Origin: Massariosphaeria phaeospora
Taxonomy: Eukaryota > Ascomycota > Dothideomycetes > Pleosporales
Reading direction: 5' to 3'
NCBI GenBank assembly: GCA_011032825.1
Contig: JAADJZ010000001.1
Span: 1 to 64,000 of the forward strand
DNA length: 64,000 bases
The position numbers were made by a program, and so were the translations under genes. Each line of letters opens with the position of its first letter. The first letter of the stretch is position 1. Below the pieces are notes generated by a model. It did no database searches. It was given only the letters and a program-made list of their open reading frames with translations, and was not told the DNA's origin. Positions 29,828 to 50,057 of the stretch are shown piece by piece.

Positions 29828-32800
29828 CTACGCACTCGCTTCCGCCTCACTCTGCCTCCCCGCTACACTCCCCATCCTCCACCCCGCCTTCGGATCCACC
29901 ACCTTATCCAGAACTTGGCTCCTCTCGCCCTCTTTGCCCCATCCCCCGCCCCCAGGCGTACACACAATAATGCGCTCCCCGGGCCTCATGCTCGCCGTGT
30001 TCTTGGCGCCGAGGTTGATATACCGGTACTCCACCTCTCCCTCTGCCTCGCCATCCCCTTTATCCGCATGCACGATACGCCTCTCCCGCGCTTCGAGGTC
30101 CTCTACCACACCGCCCTCGTCCAACGAAGCACTCTTGTCGGTATCCGACTTAGCGTCTCCAGCCTTGGAGTCTGAGTTCCTGTCGATAGACCGCTTGTCG
30201 ACTTTGCGCACCCAAATGTTCAGTCCGCACGCTGCGTCGCCGCCGCCCGCCATACCGTACGGATGGTACACGCGGCGCTCGCTCAGAATCGACACCTGCA
30301 CCGGAATGCGAAACTCGATGTCGCGGACGACACCCTCGCCGCCGCGGTGCATACCCGAGCCTGCCGAACCAGACCGCAACCCGAACTCGCGCAACAGGAC
30401 CGGGTAGCGGCGCTCGAAGATCTCCGAGTCAGTGATGCGCGTGTTAGTCATGTGGACGTGGACGCCCGAGGTACCGTGCCAGGTGGGACCTGCGCCCGAG
30501 CCGCCAGCGATGGTCTCGTAGTAGCCGAAACCCTTTGTCTCTTTGCGTTCAGACGAGCCGGCCTCGAAGGACGTGCCGCCGAAGCCGAAGGTCAGGTTGT
30601 TGCAGTCGCCTTGCGAGGCGGCGCAGGCGCGGAAGGCTTTGAAGATGACGTCGGTGACGCGCTGCGAGGTGAGGACGTTGCCGCCGACGACGGCGGCGTT
30701 GTCCGAGGGCGAGAGGAAGGATTTCTTGGGGATGCGCACGTGGATGGGCGCGAGGCAGCCTTGGTTTAGCGGGATGTCTTCGCTGATGAGACAGCGGAGG
30801 CAGTAGATGATGGCCGAGTAGGTGACGGCTTCGGGGGCGTTGATGTTGCCGTAGACTTCGGGACCTGTGCCGGCGAAGTCGAATACTGCCTCGCCTTTTT
30901 CGGGGTCGATAGTGATTTTGAGCTTGATGGGTGACCCGTCATCCATGAAGTCGATCGCAGACAGGTCTTGGCCTTCGAATCGCTTGTAGACGTCTTTCAG
31001 GAGACTACGTACGCTAGCTTCGGCGTTCGCCTGGATATTGTGCATATAGAACTTAACCACCTGCTCGCCGTAGTCGTCCATCAGCGTGTTAATGAGATTG
31101 ATACCTTTTTGGTTGGCAGCGACTTGGGCTTTCAAATCGTTGATGTTATCGCTCAGACCACGAGTGCCACTGCACCCCGGGTACTGGCCGGGCTCGTCGA
31201 GGAGGAGCTCCGTGATGCGTTTCTCGTTGAAGTGACCTTCCGAAACAAGCTTTTCAGATTTGATGGCTGCGCCTTCTTGGTAGAGTTCTTTGGAGTGCGG
31301 AGGCATAGAACCGGGGAGGATGCCACCGATGTCAGCGTGGTGAGCCCTAGATGCAACATAAAATATTATATTGTCACTGGAAAACGCAGGCGTAATGACG
31401 GTGATGTCCGGAAGATGCGTACCGCCGAACATGGGATGGTTGGAAACGAGTACGTCGCCCTTGTTCAGCTTGCCCTTCCAAATCGAGGCTTGTTTCCGGA
31501 CGCATGTAGACATGCTGCCTAAATGTACAGGTAGGTGAGGCGCTGAAGACTTGTTAGTATTGGCGTAAAAATATACGAGGTCCCATAGTCATACCATTAG
31601 CGACAAGGCCACCGTTAGCGTCAAAGAGCGCACATGAGTAGTCCAGACGCTCTTTAACGTTTGTGGAGACGCTCGTCTTCTGCAGCGCGCGACCCATCTG
31701 CTCGGCAATAGCCATAAATCTGTGAGCGAAAATACTCAGAAGGATCGGGTCGACCTCTTCTGTCCCAATTGCTTGGTCTTGGCCACTACTCTCGCCGATA
31801 TTGATGACAACATGAGTGTCGATTACCAAGGCTGAGGCATCAGGCGTAACAACGATGGTCTGAGTGCCATCAGCAATGATAGCCGGTCCTCTGATGCGGT
31901 CCCCTGTCGCTAGATCTTCTAGTTTGTAAATCGATGTGTCTTGACGTCCCCCTTCGAAGAACACTTTCTTTGAACCATGTTGCTTCTCGCCTTTGCTTAG
32001 TTCGTTCGGCTTCACTACCTTCAACTGCTGGTCTACAGTCTTTTCTAAGCCTTCGAATGTCTTTCCAATACCCCTGGCACGGACGTCGTCGACAATGATG
32101 TCGCGGTCGGGAAGGGTGAAACCAAACTCTTGTTCGTGCTGCTTTACGAAAGCTTTACCGAATGCCCACTCATCGCCATTGTAATCTTTCTCGGCTTCTT
32201 CCTTCGAAGGTTTCACTATCATCAATGCCGATTCAGTTCCGCGATACCGGAGGTTGAGGTATTCTTCAAAGTGTACTTGTTCTTCTGAGAATCCTTGGTC
32301 TTTTAGCGTTACCATTGATTTAGACTTCAGCTCTTGCATTTTCTGCTGAAGATAGTCCCGCACCTCCTTCTCTTCTGACCAAACCTTCGACTCGGGTTCT
32401 TGTCTCTCATCCACGACGTCTGCGAGAGCCATGCCGTATGCTGAAAGTACTGACGAGTATCGGTGCACGAGAATCTGCGATATGCCCAGCGCTTGCGCAA
32501 TGGCCACTGCGTGTTGGCCTCCAGCTCCACCGAAGGTAGCAAGTCTGTGTTTCGACGTATCGTGCCCCCGCGCTTCGGTCAGACTTCGAATTGGGCGTGT
32601 CATTGTCTCGTTCGCAATCTGGATGAAGCCATTAGCAACCTCATCTAGCGACATCTCCTTTTCCTTGTTGCCACCAGAAACCTCTTCATTTATCTGCGCT
32701 GCTAGCTCTTTGAACAGCTTCTCACTCGCATCGGCATCGAGCCCTTCGTCCTCATTCTTGCCGAAAATCTTGGGGAAGAATTCGGGTAGGAGCCGGCCGA

Positions 32801-34140
32801 GGAAAAGATTAGCGTCCGTAATAGTCAAGGGACCTCCTTTGCGATAACAAGCAGGTCCAGGATGCGCACTAGCTGATTCTGGTCCTACCACGAACAGGCC
32901 GTTTTTCCAGAACAAGCGAGACCCCCCTCCGGCAGCTACAGTGTTAATATCAAGTTGAGGAGACTGGATGGTGACGCCTGCTGTAGTAGTCTCAAAGACA
33001 TGGTCGTATCTTCCGGCGCCATATCGACTGACGTCCGTACTGGTGCCACCCATGTCAAAGCCAATGACTGGGATTTTGGTTTGAGGGTCGTAAGAAGTCA
33101 GCGCATAGCCCACTACTCCGCCTGCCGGTCCAGAAAGAATGGCCTTGAGTCCGGAAAAGATGTCCACATCCACGAGGCCACCATCCGATTGCATGAACTC
33201 GCAACGCGCACCTTTCGATTCACCTTCTTGCTTTACACTCTTGGAGCCGAGGCCGCCAGCGAAACCGTTCGAGAAGCCATCAATGTATTTGCGGATGGCA
33301 GGGGTGAGATACGCGTCGGCGCATGCAGAAGTGCCTCTCGGGACCAGCTTTATCATGGGCATGAGCTCATGGCTTAGGCTGACGTGCTCAAACCCAATTT
33401 CTTTAGCGATCTTGCCCACCAAAGCCTCATGCTTGGGATATGTGTAGCCATGCATCATGCATACAGCAATGCTTCTTAGACCCCCGTCATATACATCCTG
33501 CAGTTGTTGTCTTATTCTTTGTTCCCCCGGTCGTTGTAGGATCCGCACCGTTTCGCCGGAAAGTCCTCTTACCAAGTTGGCGTCTTCTCCAGCCTTCTCA
33601 ATCGACTCAGCTTCGGTATGGTTCCTCTCCGGATCCTCAGCGTAGTCTTCCAGAGTCACACGCTCCTCAATTTCAACCACCTTCTTGTATAGCACCTCGG
33701 GCTTCCTGATGTCGAGCGCAAAGATGTTCGGCCGTGATTGGTTGCCGATCTCTAGACAGTCCTTGAAGCCCTTTGTGACCACCAAGGCAATATCTTCGCC
33801 TTTTCTCTCCAACAGTGCGTTCGTTGCGACAGTGGTGCCCATGCGGATGCTCTCGATCTTGGACGTGTCCAGTGCTTCCCCGCGCGGGATCTCGGTACCG
33901 GTGAATCTGGATAGCAAGCGCCGTATGCCTTCGAGCGGCGCGTCGTCGTAGTTGGCCGGGTCGACGGAAAGCAGCTTTATGATGACGTCGTCTTCCATTT
34001 TTCCCGTTCCGGGGTTGCCTACACAGTCTGTGAAGGTGCCACCTCTCTAGTCCGGTCAACAGCGTGGCAATCAGAGTAGGGCTGAGACTTACATCTATGG
34101 CAATGCGGATTCCCCGCTGGCCTATGCTTACTGAACCCAT
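29828..34140 (-). CDS. OXP1: 5-oxoprolinase (ATP-hydrolysing)
   Basis: Three exons (34093-34140, 31595-34046, 29828-31542) give 1404 residues, within the usual size of eukaryotic 5-oxoprolinases or slightly longer. The enzyme opens 5-oxoproline to glutamate with ATP in the gamma-glutamyl cycle of glutathione turnover, in the cytosol. The N-terminal hydantoinase-A half begins [16 protein letters not shown] and, across the 46-bp intron, [10 protein letters not shown]. Further on are [14 protein letters not shown] and the [11 protein letters not shown] motif. The hydantoinase-B half starts near residue 790 and has [21 protein letters not shown] and a C-terminal GGGGWG. The second intron (31543-31594) joins GLVAN to [11 protein letters not shown] exactly as expected. 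A charged insertion near residues 1300-1345 is unlike the core family. The call is firm. Confidence 0.93.
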
Positions 34141-44258: not shown

Positions 44259-47143
44259 TTATAAGTGCCCGAACAATTCCGGCGACAGATAGAAAGTATT
44301 TGACTTCTTTCCCTTCCCGTCTTGCTTCAAGCTAATCCAAGCATGTATCCCGCGCCCTTCATCGAGCGGTCTCCGCTGAACGGCACTTACAATATTCGCA
44401 TAACGTCTTTGGAAAGCTGTTGGAAGACTCGCCACACTAATGTAATGTTGCACGCGGCGTTGAACCTCCGCATCATCATCCGCATACGCCACAACGGGGA
44501 AATGCACGGTGCCGACCGGACCATCGGGTGCCTCACTCGTGAATGCAAAGCAGGACAGCAGCGACTTTTTCGTGTATGGCCCAAGCGAGCCACCGGCCAT
44601 CGAGGAGCAAAATTGCTGGATCGAGTACGCGCAGGCGTTGGGGCAGATCTGCGCGTGCTTTTGGGCAATGGTCGAGGCGGTTGCATTTGGATGGGCAACG
44701 TAGATCTTGATACGAGAGTGAACTGGGTGCGGTGACAGATCGAGGGAGAAGTAGAGTACAGAGTCGTCGGGTGTCATGATGCTGGTCAGGAGCTGCCATG
44801 CACTGGCTAGGCCGAGACGCTCAAACGCCTCGCGAGTCACTGAGGAGGCTTGAGGTACGCCCGTTGCGCAAGGATTGAGATACACCTTCCATTCCGGTCC
44901 TGCTTTGGTGGCGGCGCAGCTGTGCCATGCGGCAAACATGCCTTCGGGCTGGGCAGGTAGGAAGAGGTCACGGATATCATTCATGCGGCCGAGAGAGACG
45001 GTTGAGCTGTATCTCTTTGCGATTTCGTCGTTTAGCCGGACGGCACTCTCTTGTAAGTCCTTAAGCCTGTTGCCGTTTGCTTGAGCTTCTATAAGGAAGC
45101 GGAGTTCGGCGTCCCCGGTCTTCTGGTCCAGTGCCACAGAGTACTCGTAGAAGGCATGATCGTTGCTGACGTTCGAGATCCACGCTGACGGATCGAGCTT
45201 TTGGGGCACTGGTAGTTTACCGAATTCGCCCCCTGATAACACCAGAGCCCCGAGTAGCTGTTCCTTTGCCGCTGGGTTGAGATTGCTGGCCTGCGCAAGA
45301 CGCGACAATTGCTTGCAGGCCTCGTCCATGTAGCTACCTGATATGCTTTGGGTCACTGGGATGGGTCTCAAACCACACGAAAAGTGCCGAAGCCTCATTT
45401 GCTTTCCCCTCGAGATTTCCATATTTGGAATCGTGTGCCTTCTGTTATACAGCGCTTTGATGGCCGCGACTGTGTAATCAATATGTTCTTTGGACTGAAC
45501 ATGACGCGGGACAGCAAAGCGGACAAGGTTCGGGATCTTTTCACGCTCCGCTGGCGACTTCTTGTCCCACTCCCATCCGAAAGGGCCAGCTTCTGCAGCG
45601 CGGATACCGAAATCTTTGATCAGCTCCACCGTGAATCCGACCGAGGCGAAGTCGTCCGGTTTCCTGTCGCACCCGAAGAAAAAGTCGTTCATTTCGAGGT
45701 AGACGGCGTGGCCTCCTGGCGGCAGAAGAACAGATATCCCGTTGGACAGGAGCTCCTGGGCGAAATTCTGGACCTGGCCAATGCGGTTACGGAGGTACGT
45801 CAACTTCGTGACTTCGTTGAGACCCATTACAGCGGTCATGAGATCACGTCCACTCACTGGTGATTGAAGTTAGCTATCTAAGTCCTAATCCGGCAGAGAC
45901 ATGTTTCGATCGATCAAAAACGAGACTTCAAGCAAACAGAGACGACTTACTGCCACCGTAGGAGTCATTTCCATAGCTCAGGATTTGCCGTTCCTTTAAG
46001 CGAAGGCCTATGCCCTCGTACCTTTGGGTGAACCTTCCCTTGTCACGAAAGCAGAGCACACCTCCCATGTTCGATAGACCATCTTTCTTCAAAGATATGG
46101 TGAAACCTTCAGTGTACGAGAACATTTCTTGGACGATTTCAGCAATCGATTTGTTGGCATAGCCCTCCTCGTACTGGTGGATGAAGAAGGCGTTTTCGGC
46201 AAACCGACAGGCATCGAAAAAGAAGGGAATCTCTTTGCGCTTGGCTAGTGCTGCCGCACTTCGAATGTTGGCCATGGAGACTGGTTGGGCGGCGGCCCAG
46301 TTGTTAGTGATGGTCATTAAGATCATGGCGACATGGCCCGGATGTTGATCTAGATACGCTTCTGTCGCCGCTACATCCAGGTTTCCCTTGAAGTCGTTCG
46401 ACTTCCCCACAAGCTCGTGGGGAAAAGCGTCGCTCAAGCCTGGCTGGGTAAAGGTCTGAAGCTCAAACCCGGCAACGGCGGCATTGGCACCCGTTGTGTC
46501 GAAGAACCCGTTGCTGATGATCGCAGGCAGCGCTTTGCCTCCGGAGCTTTCGGAAATCATACTACTCAAGGTAGAGAAGAGGAGGGCCTCGGCGCAGCGC
46601 CCCTGTGGCACAATGAAGAAATTCGGACGCTCCAGTTGGTGAGGGCCCCCGTTGACGAATCCGTCTTGCGAGGATACGAGGAGTTTGCTTCGGTAGTACT
46701 CGCTGTCGACCATGCCCGTGATGATGCCTTGGAAAGCATGTCTGGGGCTGTTGCCATGCTCGAAAATGTCCCGGAACGTGTCCAGCAGACAGTAATATCC
46801 CCAGTTGCGACCGTAGCTTTCGTCTCCTCGCATCACTGCATCGTCTTCAGTTAACACAAGCTCTTTTTCATAGAAACCAAGAAAGTAGCTAGGGAGTGGG
46901 TTGAGCCGGGGGTCTCTGTCGGGAAGACTTACGGGCGGCCCACTGTGTGTCTGTCATGGCCGAGGTACCAGAATCCGAGAGATAATCGCAAGTGAGGAGG
47001 CCAGCCGGGAAGGCGAAGATGTTGTACTCGACGTCTTCGAGGATGCGTTCGCGCTCCTCGGGCTTCACAGCGAGCAGAGACCGCACTACCACGGCACTAT
47101 GCGCGGGTGGTGCAGGCATACTTGTCCTCGTAAAAAGAGTCAT
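44259..47143 (-). CDS. Tryptophanase-DMATS prenyltransferase fusion
   Basis: Three exons (46933-47143, 45951-46862, 44259-45856) join in phase to 906 residues. Residues 1-~540 are a tryptophanase/tyrosine-phenol-lyase-type PLP enzyme: LSDSGTSAMTDTQWAA near 55-70, FFFDACRFAENAFFI near 284-298, and SLKKDGLSNMGGVLCF with the PLP Lys at about 330. The SYGGMSGRDL motif spans the second intron, and RLRHFSCGLRPI closes the domain. Residues ~548-906 are an ABBA/DMATS indole prenyltransferase: a probable catalytic Glu at 612 (FYEYSVAL), KVYLNP at 698-703, YFSLDLSPHP, RIKIYV at 756-761 and YLSPELFGHL at the end. The lyase would split tryptophan into indole, pyruvate and ammonia, and the transferase could add dimethylallyl to indole or Trp. 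An insertion near residues 120-150 is absent from bacterial tryptophanase. The Met at residue 9 is an alternative start. Confidence 0.88.
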
Positions 47144-47504: not shown

Positions 47505-47870
47505 AATATTAGCAAGCAAGAAAACTAAAACTCTACTTTTTATAATCTAGATAGTTAACTTTCTTTAGTTATACAGAATCTCTTTATTTTACTAGTATTA
47601 GTATTAGATAATATACAATTTAGTCTAGTAATAGATATAGTTAACTAGTAGATATAAATTATCTTTAGAATTTTTTTATACTAATTTATGTATAACTAAT
47701 ACTAGATGCTATCTATTATTTAGTAGTATTATAGTAGTATACACTATACTAGGTGTATTTAGTAAAGAGTAGTACTAGATATATTATAACTAGTTAAGTT
47801 ATTTATTTGCAGATATATTACTAAGCTAAATTATAATAAGTAAAAGATTAGATTAAGATTAGGTGTACTG
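47505..47870. mobile_element. AT-saturated RIP-like relic
   Basis: About 365 bp of extreme A/T content with very few CpG or CpA dinucleotides, abrupt edges and no ORF. In filamentous ascomycetes this is the usual look of a repeat destroyed by repeat-induced point mutation. No terminal repeats or transposase remain, so the original element cannot be named. Confidence 0.5.
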
Positions 47871-48383: not shown

Positions 48384-50057
48384 ATGGCTTCGCTAGCACT
48401 CTACACCGTCGTCTTCCTCGTCTCGCTATTGTTCCTGTACCTCTACCGAGCGTATATAGCAAAATCGTCTCTGCCTCTCCCTCCAGGTCCTCCCGCTCTT
48501 CCGATCATCGGCAATGTCCATCAGGCCCCCAAATCATACCCATGGCTGCAATATCATGCATGGGGTAAGACGTACGGGCCCGTCCTGCACCTGAACATGT
48601 TAGGTCAGCCGGTCATTGTCCTGTCCACGTCAGCCGCAGCCCACGATCTCCTGGCCAAGCGGGGCGCAACGTTCTCAGACCGCCCCCGATTTGTCGTACG
48701 TCTTTTGAACCAAACTCTTGTAAAGGCAGCTGTTGACATGTTATCTGCCTTCTAGGTGGCCGCTGAGCTGGCGCTAAAAGGTATGCATATGCTACTGAGA
48801 CCGTATGACGAGCGGTTCAGGGTGCATCAGAAGCTGGAAAGCCCGCTGTTGAGCATGCGAGCAGCTAGTGCATACCTTCCATTCCAGGAGCTCGAGTCGA
48901 AGCAGTTGCTATACGACTTGCTTGGCAACGCCGGAGGCTCTGGAGGTGATTGTCACGGCCACTTTGAGCGCACCACGGCCAGCATCATCTACGGCCTCTT
49001 CTACGGATTCCGGCTCAAAACTGCGTCGGACCCTGTGCTTCTCACTGCCCACTCGGTCAACCACGAGTTCGATCAGTTGGCCCAAGTCGGAAAGTACCTA
49101 GTCGACTCCTTCCCCGTGTTGAACAACCTCCCTGGCTCACTAGCGCCCTGGAAAGCCGAAGCCGAGAAACACTGGGAGCGACAGCGCGCCTTGCACGTCG
49201 GGAACTTGCAGCAAGGGTATGCCGCTAATGGCTGGAACTTCTCCAAACAGATGAAAAAGACGCTGGACAACGAGGCAATCGACATGTCCGAGGAGGAACT
49301 TGCCCTTGACGTGGGTATCATGGCGGACGCCGCCCTGGACGCCAGCACCGAGACACTCATGTGGTTCGTCGTTGCATGTATCACGTCGAATAAGGGTTTC
49401 ATCGCCAAAGCCCAGAACCATCTCGACACTGTGGTTGGCCGAGATCGGTTGCCCGACTTCGCAGACCGCCCGCAGCTGCTGTATATCGACGCGATCGTCG
49501 AAGAGCTGCTGCGCTGGCGCCCTGCTGGCGCCGCCGGCGTCCCCCACTTTACGAAAGTGGAAAGCAGCTACAAAGGCTACAGAATCCCGGCAAACTCGGT
49601 GGTGATCCCGAACCACTGGTCCATGACCCGCGAGGAAGAAGTCTTCGGTTCGAACGTCGAAGACTTCTCGCCCGAACGCTGGCTGCCGTCCGCGAACCCG
49701 GACGACGGCACCCCGTGCGCCCCCAGTGGCCTCCGCGATCTCCCCATTGTAGGTTTTGGCTATGGGAGACGGCTGTGTCCCGGACGCCATGTCGCTCGCA
49801 ACGTCCTATGGATCACGATTGCGCGCGTCCTGTGGGCGTTCGAAATCGAGCCCGGTCTGTCGGAGACTGGGGAACGTTTGGCTGTGGATAGCATGGCTGC
49901 CACTGATGGCCTCGTCTCGAAGCCGCTGCCGTTCAAGGCCAGCTTCAAGCCGAGAGGGTCGTGGGTAAATGATATTGTTATGGCGGAATGCGACACGCAC
50001 GATGTCGCCTTCGCAGACATTTTGCACCGGATTGGAGGGGATATGGCTCCAAGATGA
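48384..50057 (+). CDS. Cytochrome P450 monooxygenase
   Basis: Two exons (48384-48695 and 48756-50057) give 537 residues. The N-terminal helix (LYTVVFLVSLLFLYLYRAY) anchors it in the ER membrane, followed by the proline hinge PPGPPALPIIGN. In the I helix ALDASTETL replaces the usual AGxDTT. EELLRWRP is the ExxR motif, PERW follows, and FGYGRRLCPGRHVA is the haem-binding loop with Cys at residue 445. The 60-bp intron (48696-48755) joins RPRFV to VAAELALKGMHM. It resembles fungal secondary-metabolite P450s (CYP64-like by eye). It is transcribed away from the tryptophanase-DMATS gene across 1.2 kb, so oxidation of a prenylated indole is the obvious guess, not a proof. Confidence 0.92.

What the first reader, a model, noticed from the sequence alone, without database searches (positions are those of the whole stretch)
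44259..47143. Tryptophanase fused to a DMATS prenyltransferase in one fungal protein
A single spliced frame of 906 residues joins a full tryptophanase-type lyase (PLP Lys motif SLKKD, FAENAFFI, closing RLRHF) to an ABBA indole prenyltransferase (KVYLNP, RIKIYV, YLSPELF). Both catalytic halves look intact. The pair could turn tryptophan into prenylated indole or recycle indole, a biosynthetic logic that I recall in bacteria from separate genes (Streptomyces prenyl-indole pathways). The fusion makes channelling of indole from one active site to the other plausible.
Basis: partly seen in the sequence, partly recalled or inferred. Interest (0 to 1): 0.92.

Follow-up and report, generated by a model that had tools for sequence, protein, structure and literature searches.

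The report
Fungal tryptophanase–prenyltransferase fusion enzyme
A fungus carries one gene that joins two bacterial-type enzymes, one that attaches a five-carbon prenyl group to tryptophan and one that cuts the side chain off tryptophan, so a single protein could probably make prenyl-indole directly.

Summary
The fusion is real. On the minus strand, 47143 to 44259, three exons encode one 897-residue protein (not 906: homologues place the first acceptor 27 bases further on). Residues 1-531 are a complete tryptophanase with the catalytic residues tested and the tryptophanase rather than tyrosine phenol-lyase signature. Residues about 540-897 are a complete DMATS-type prenyltransferase; the junction lies inside one uninterrupted exon. 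The prenyltransferase half resembles bacterial more than fungal DMATS enzymes in sequence and predicted fold. The halves do not come together from the sampled actinomycete pair: the tryptophanase half joins a long Fusobacterium tryptophanase, and the order is reversed. Bacteria support functional coupling: in 28 of 30 Micromonosporaceae loci examined a tryptophanase gene directly follows the DMATS gene, and one Micromonospora genome has both in one frame, in the other order. Two pocket residues of the tryptophanase half are alanine, one at the site where TPL M379A admits bulky substrates. How widespread the fusion is in fungi could not be tested. The papers that my searches listed do not describe it. 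New variant of a known kind.

The parts
44259..47143 (-). Whole gene (coding part with introns): tryptophanase-DMATS fusion, 897 aa
46933..47143 (-). Exon 1, start of tryptophanase half (alternative in-frame ATG at 47119)
46836..46932 (-). Intron 1 (predicted), GTAAGT...CAG, 97 bases; acceptor chosen by homologues, not the AAG that gives 906 residues
45951..46835 (-). Exon 2, core of tryptophanase half; PLP lysine K321 at 46084-46086
45857..45950 (-). Intron 2 (predicted), GTAAGT...CAG, 94 bases
44259..45856 (-). Exon 3: end of tryptophanase half plus the complete prenyltransferase half, no break between them
44262..45359 (-). DMATS-type prenyltransferase half (residues 532-897); conserved glutamate E603 at 45144-45146
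48384..50054 (+). Divergent cytochrome P450 next door (two open frames, at least one intron), 1.2 kb from the fusion start, with heme motif GFGYGRRLCPG; a shared pathway is not shown

Best explanation
One gene encodes one bifunctional enzyme. The C-terminal DMATS half transfers a dimethylallyl group from DMAPP to the benzene part of the indole of L-tryptophan (C6 or C5 by analogy). The N-terminal PLP-dependent tryptophanase half then removes the side chain by beta-elimination, giving prenyl-indole, pyruvate and ammonia. Shown: single open gene, both families, catalytic residues in place, predicted fold of the prenyltransferase half, bacterial homologues of the pair adjacent or in one frame. 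Inferred: the order of the steps, the site of prenylation, any channelling, and a role for the neighbouring P450.
For: Both domains in one protein and in one exon across the junction. Tryptophanase half: Y78, D183, N249, D278, R281, K321, R478, H523 kept against E. coli TnaA; D and H where the TPL row has T124 and F448. Prenyltransferase half: E603 and the other positions invariant over all 24 aligned rows are kept; AlphaFold model mean pLDDT 87 with ten strands; the first 28 Foldseek rows are bacterial DMATS-type chains, the best the Micromonospora olivasterospora 6-DMATS (origin printed for some rows, recalled for PriB, CymD, IptA, TleC). Pairing: a tryptophanase follows the DMATS gene on the same strand in 28 of the 30 Micromonosporaceae loci fetched out of 58 places, in 12 of 27 loci (some genomes are in both sets) and in 2 of 5 plasmid loci fetched. 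L023 is a 919-codon frame holding both domains. The bacterial pathway prenylates Trp first; in the sister Type B pathway the next enzyme has Km 0.57 uM for prenyl-Trp and 3300 uM for Trp (PMC3617294 Discussion). Pocket: E. coli V394 and I396 are A453 and A455 here; Ala at 394 in 13 of 14 DMATS-neighbour TnaAs and 1 of 12 others; Ala at 396 only in the fusion among 27 tryptophanases. The V394 site aligns with TPL M379, whose change to Ala admits bulky 3-substituted tyrosines (PMC9262865, abstract and passages).
Against: No enzyme assay or transcript. Identity of the prenyltransferase half to bacterial relatives is about 24-34%, so the acceptor may differ. The pairing is not general: none of 7 other actinomycete loci and neither of 2 cyanobacterial loci shows a tryptophanase within the roughly 1.3 kb of flank held. 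The tryptophanase half is not of the DMATS-neighbour clade (AU p 5e-39), so substrate preference cannot be carried over from there. The 14 neighbours form one clade, so the residue count is not 14 independent cases.
Confidence: 0.6

Rival explanations
1. Indole first: the tryptophanase half makes indole, which the prenyltransferase half prenylates, perhaps by channelling.
For: Tryptophanase residues for Trp cleavage are present, including D183 and H523. The lyase comes first in the chain, though domain order does not set reaction order.
Against: The nearest structures are tryptophan prenyltransferases, several solved with Trp; the bacterial pathway prenylates Trp first; the pocket looks widened.
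Confidence: 0.15
2. The two activities are used separately: the fusion only couples expression, or an internal start (in-frame ATG at residues 519 or 542) yields a free prenyltransferase.
For: In-frame methionines lie just before the prenyltransferase homology; the match to 6zrx starts at residue 542.
Against: No stop or predicted intron between the halves; no expression data either way.
Confidence: 0.12
3. The tryptophanase half works in reverse or as a beta-substitution catalyst, making prenyl-tryptophan from prenyl-indole and serine, or pyruvate plus ammonia.
For: Reversibility is established for this enzyme family (recalled); the TPL M379A paper uses the synthetic direction.
Against: The prenyltransferase relatives make prenyl-Trp directly, so the reverse step would be superfluous.
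Confidence: 0.07
4. One half is catalytically dead or has taken a new substrate (another aromatic), so the product is not prenyl-indole.
For: Long branch of the prenyltransferase half (1.47 changes per column); unusual A453/A455 pocket.
Against: The tested catalytic residues are kept in both halves; TPL-defining residues are absent.
Confidence: 0.06

Closest known systems
Actinomycete Type A indole prenyltransferase clusters (IptA with tryptophanase; 6-dimethylallylindole-3-carbaldehyde), PMC3617294
   Same: Same two activities paired; bacterial-type DMATS fold
   Different: Separate genes in DMATS-then-TnaA order; the tryptophanase belongs to another clade
Micromonospora sp. HM5-17 DMATS-tryptophanase frame (L023, 919 codons)
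   Same: Both domains in one frame; I see no in-frame ATG, GTG or TTG in the linker
   Different: Reverse domain order, linker of about 45 residues, actinomycete-type tryptophanase; 1 of 58 Trp_DMAT places in 354 Micromonosporaceae genomes; an assembly error is not excluded
Bacterial 6-DMATS / 5-DMATS / PriB / IptA / CymD (PDB 6zrx, 6zs0, 5k9m, 7w8v, 6os6)
   Same: Fold and invariant residues of the prenyltransferase half
   Different: 24-29% identity in the structural alignments; stand-alone proteins
Long tryptophanases (PDB 8sl7, 569 aa; Fusobacterium vincentii L014, 545 aa)
   Same: 45.6% identity to L014 over nearly the whole half; 8sl7 also aligns through the stretch near residues 99-145 that shorter tryptophanases lack
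   Different: Stand-alone; L014 has S and L where the fusion has A453 and A455
Fungal DMATS enzymes (FgaPT2, DMATS1; the genome's own L007 and L008)
   Same: Same overall fold
   Different: FgaPT2 and DMATS1 13-17% identity; a 100/100 branch parts the own two from the fusion and the bacterial rows
Fungal tryptophanases explained by transfer from bacteria (PMC8537960, passages read)
   Same: Tryptophanase genes reported in Sordariomycetes and Eurotiomycetes
   Different: 'prenyl' occurs 0 times in its main text

Membership tests
Tryptophanase (EC 4.1.99.1) | PLP lysine in S-x-K-K-D and PLP/substrate ligands | tested here: met
   K321 in SLKKD, Y78, N249, D278, R281, R478 kept (roles recalled)
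Tryptophanase (EC 4.1.99.1) | D137/H463 (E. coli) rather than TPL T124/F448/R381 | tested here: met
   D183 and H523; A455 at the R381 site (significance of these sites recalled)
Tryptophanase (EC 4.1.99.1) | Trp to indole activity | not testable with these tools
   needs an assay
DMATS-type prenyltransferase | Trp_DMAT profile over cut-off | tested here: met
   38.5 bits, cut-off 25
DMATS-type prenyltransferase | Ten-stranded PT barrel of ABBA units | tested here: met
   AlphaFold model, pLDDT 87, ten strands; TM by query length 0.80-0.85 to the first 28 rows, bacterial DMATS types
DMATS-type prenyltransferase | Catalytic Glu and K/R/Y diphosphate site | tested here: met
   25 invariant columns over 24 rows include E85, R100, K171, Y173, R229, K231, Y233, Y370 of the half (roles recalled)
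DMATS-type prenyltransferase | Trp as acceptor | not tested
   carboxylate-binding residues were not mapped
Actinomycete Type A (iptA-tryptophanase) cluster | TnaA from the DMATS-neighbour clade | tested here: not met
   AU p 5.33e-39, log-likelihood 136 lower
Actinomycete Type A (iptA-tryptophanase) cluster | DMATS gene before TnaA | tested here: not met
   reverse order here; DMATS then TnaA in 14 of 14 pairs and 28 of 28
Actinomycete Type A (iptA-tryptophanase) cluster | DMATS half from the tnaA-neighbour clade | tested here: inconclusive
   AU p 0.517 for joining it, 0.219 with four cyanobacterial rows, 0.476 with the two fungal-type rows on one side

The most novel reading that the evidence does not exclude
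A fungus acquired or built a two-step prenyl-indole synthase by joining two genes of different bacterial origin into one chain, convergent with a separate fusion in Micromonospora, and the tryptophanase half has been reshaped (A453/A455) to accept prenyl-tryptophan handed over from the other half.
Probability: 0.3. Interest if true: 0.72.

Novelty: new variant of a known kind. Interest (0 to 1): 0.6.

Why it matters
It would show a bacterial-style prenyl-indole pathway inside a fungus as a single enzyme, predict a specific class of fungal product (prenyl-indoles), and offer a self-contained catalyst. Joining of the same two activities in opposite orders in a fungus and a bacterium would be strong evidence that the two steps belong together, and would make the order of the steps testable in one protein.

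Tried and rejected
906-residue model: rejected, it inserts nine residues absent from homologues. Tyrosine phenol-lyase for the first half: rejected by D183, H523, A455. Direct transfer of the sampled actinomycete DMATS-tnaA pair: rejected for the tryptophanase half and disfavoured by gene order; open for the prenyltransferase half. Descent from the fungus's own DMATS genes: disfavoured by similarity, but the AU test did not reject holding the half with the two fungal-type rows on one side of a branch (p 0.476), so its place at the base of the bacterial rows is unresolved. A regular-expression search for P450/FMO motifs near bacterial loci missed an annotated P450 and an annotated monooxygenase and was dropped. 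The first genome-contig scan, with one sequence, found nothing. Of 9 plasmid records with a DMATS match I fetched 5. L020 and L010 are the same record, so the 27 loci and the 5 plasmid loci are 31 distinct ones, 14 with a tryptophanase. From the DMATS trees I left out L041 (match in two pieces) and L020. Of 59 largely non-overlapping open frames of the window 30 were handed to Pfam, some of them parts of one gene.

Literature: looked for the fusion, for TPL M379 (open-licence PMC only). I saw listings (titles and starts of abstracts); one search listed 20 of 135 and 20 of 67. Passages were read in PMC3617294 (also its Discussion section), PMC8537960, PMC12719882, PMC2459174, PMC9262865, PMC9876896 and PMC8403587; in PMC3227686 the terms sought were absent. 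None of what I saw describes this fusion. Absence from print is not claimed.

Full report
Gene model. The region reads as the finding says. Enumerating ATG, GT and AG sites gives a gene on the minus strand with exons 47143-46933, 46835-45951 and 45856-44259. Intron 1 (97 bases) and intron 2 (94 bases) both begin GTAAGT and end CAG. The translation is 897 residues. The genome held is 42.1 Mb in 51 contigs; the introns make the gene eukaryotic, and 'fungal' is an inference from genome size and neighbours. Splicing itself is predicted, not observed.

Fusion. Pfam finds Beta_elim_lyase (53-495) and Trp_DMAT (545-763). The junction lies within an open frame of 536 codons, so no frame break exists in the DNA. 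Third-position GC is alike in the two halves, 0.65 and 0.62. Of the six Beta_elim_lyase places in the genome, none but this gene gives a tblastn hit to the tryptophanase half at 1e-5. Besides this gene the genome has two other Trp_DMAT places, at 310 and 268 bits against 36 for this one.

Tryptophanase half. The best solved relative is 8sl7, a 569-residue tryptophanase, at 466 bits over residues 9-531; the next is 243 bits. Among 78 plasmid records with a match the best is Fusobacterium vincentii, 45.6% identity and 456 bits, the next 269. In an alignment of 28 rows (fusion, 14 DMATS-neighbour tryptophanases, 12 other tryptophanases, 1 annotated tyrosine phenol-lyase) the fusion keeps Y78, D183, K321, R478 and H523; the phenol-lyase row has T124, R381 and F448 at the discriminating places. 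D at the D183 site is in all 27 tryptophanases; H at the H523 site in 26 of 27 (Variovorax has N). Two pocket positions are small: A453 (E. coli V394, TPL M379) and A455 (E. coli I396, TPL R381). Ala at the first occurs in 13 of 14 DMATS-neighbour enzymes and 1 of 12 others (a Vibrio); Ala at the second in none of the other 26 tryptophanases. The 14 neighbours are one clade, so they are not independent. M379A in TPL admits bulky 3-substituents (PMC9262865, abstract and passages). The reading 'widened pocket' is inference.

Prenyltransferase half. By sequence the PDB matches at E up to 0.01 are ten distinct sequences: nine of bacterial type, the best 6zrx at 129 bits, and one that I recall as fungal (9iia) at E 0.003. 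All 25 columns invariant over 24 rows are kept, including the glutamate E603. The AlphaFold model from a 27-row alignment has mean pLDDT 87, pTM 0.87 and ten strands in pairs between helices. Foldseek ranks 28 chains of bacterial DMATS types first (24-29% identity), then DMATS1, FunA and FgaPT2 (13-18%), which I recall or read as fungal.

Origin. In the tree of 34 DMATS rows the fusion half lies with the bacterial rows, apart from the genome's own two (branch 100/100), but its own branch is long (1.47) and its neighbour is unresolved: AU p 0.476, 0.517 and 0.219 for three placements. In the tryptophanase tree of 28 rows the half joins Fusobacterium at 100/100 and is rejected from the DMATS-neighbour clade (p 5.3e-39). 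The two halves therefore do not look like one transferred actinomycete pair; whether they were fused in a fungus or came fused is open. The long tryptophanases are represented by one bacterial row only.

Bacterial pairs. Of 27 genome loci with a DMATS relative, 12 have a tryptophanase immediately downstream on the same strand; of 5 plasmid loci fetched, 2; one record is in both sets, so 14 of 31 distinct loci. In Micromonosporaceae 53 of 354 genomes have Trp_DMAT matches, 58 places in all, one of them under the cut-off; of the 30 best places, held as loci of at most 3.8 kb, 28 have a tryptophanase immediately downstream. Some genomes occur in both samples (L065 is L023). All these pairs are in the order DMATS then TnaA. 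Against a general rule: of the loci from the wider phylum sample (8 of 396 genomes, 9 places, the centre genome included) the 7 not already in the family sample show none, and neither do the 2 cyanobacterial loci (2 of 386 genomes, one of them the centre), within about 1.3 kb of flank.

A bacterial fusion. In L023 (Micromonospora sp. HM5-17) both lie in one frame of 919 codons, both confirmed by Pfam. From the sequence shown I see no in-frame ATG, GTG or TTG in the roughly 45-codon linker, whereas three other Micromonospora loci (L032, L038, L039) have a stop after the DMATS gene. Of the 58 places it is the only one in a frame over 460 codons. It could still be an assembly error.

Mechanism. 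The characterised bacterial route is tryptophan to prenyl-tryptophan by IptA; 6-prenylindole is the proposed intermediate towards 6-dimethylallylindole-3-carbaldehyde (PMC3617294, passages and Discussion). In the Type B route the following enzyme has Km 0.57 uM for prenyl-Trp and 3.3 mM for Trp, so the tail-modifying step comes after prenylation. I carry this order over to the fusion as the most likely one (0.6); it is inference, not shown.

Neighbourhood. A divergent P450 with its heme motif lies 1.2 kb away. Among 30 of 59 open frames scanned no PKS or NRPS domain was found. A pathway of fusion plus P450 is possible but unproven.

Known or new. Tryptophanase genes in Sordariomycetes and Eurotiomycetes have been reported and explained by transfer (PMC8537960, passages). 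Nothing I saw from the literature searches (two of them capped lists) describes a tryptophanase-DMATS fusion. The library lacks most subscription journals and the protein database was switched off, so frequency among fungi and earlier reports remain open.

Noticed in passing
L023:7794-10550 (+), Micromonospora sp. HM5-17: Bacterial DMATS and tryptophanase in one 919-codon frame, reverse order to the fungal fusion; three Micromonospora relatives have a stop codon after the DMATS gene.
   Followed up: partly
L018:7740-12871 (+), Calothrix parasitica NIES-267: DMATS gene followed by an unassigned frame, a P450 and a cytokinin-dehydrogenase-like oxidase (Pfam Cytokin-bind): a possible cyanobacterial prenyl-indole or cytokinin-like cluster.
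   Followed up: no
L010:6839-11474 (+), Calothrix sp. NIES-4101 plasmid: DMATS relative annotated as hypothetical protein, near genes annotated dimethylaniline monooxygenase and SDR, resembling the actinomycete Type B (FMO) arrangement.
   Followed up: no
L024:7947-10291 (+), Streptomyces ochraceiscleroticus: DMATS gene directly before a class I/II aminotransferase, perhaps a third kind of partner beside tryptophanase and FMO.
   Followed up: no
L089:1-3802 (+), Amycolatopsis sp. AA4 plasmid: Tryptophanase gene near tsrT, annotated tryptophan 2-C-methyltransferase; perhaps it cleaves 2-methyltryptophan.
   Followed up: no
window 47520-47870: AT-rich stretch, 79% A+T against 47% for the window, between the fusion gene and the P450.
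   Followed up: partly
window 29831-34046 (-): Two overlapping open frames carry hydantoinase/oxoprolinase A and B domains; likely one oxoprolinase-type gene with an intron or frame interruption.
   Followed up: no
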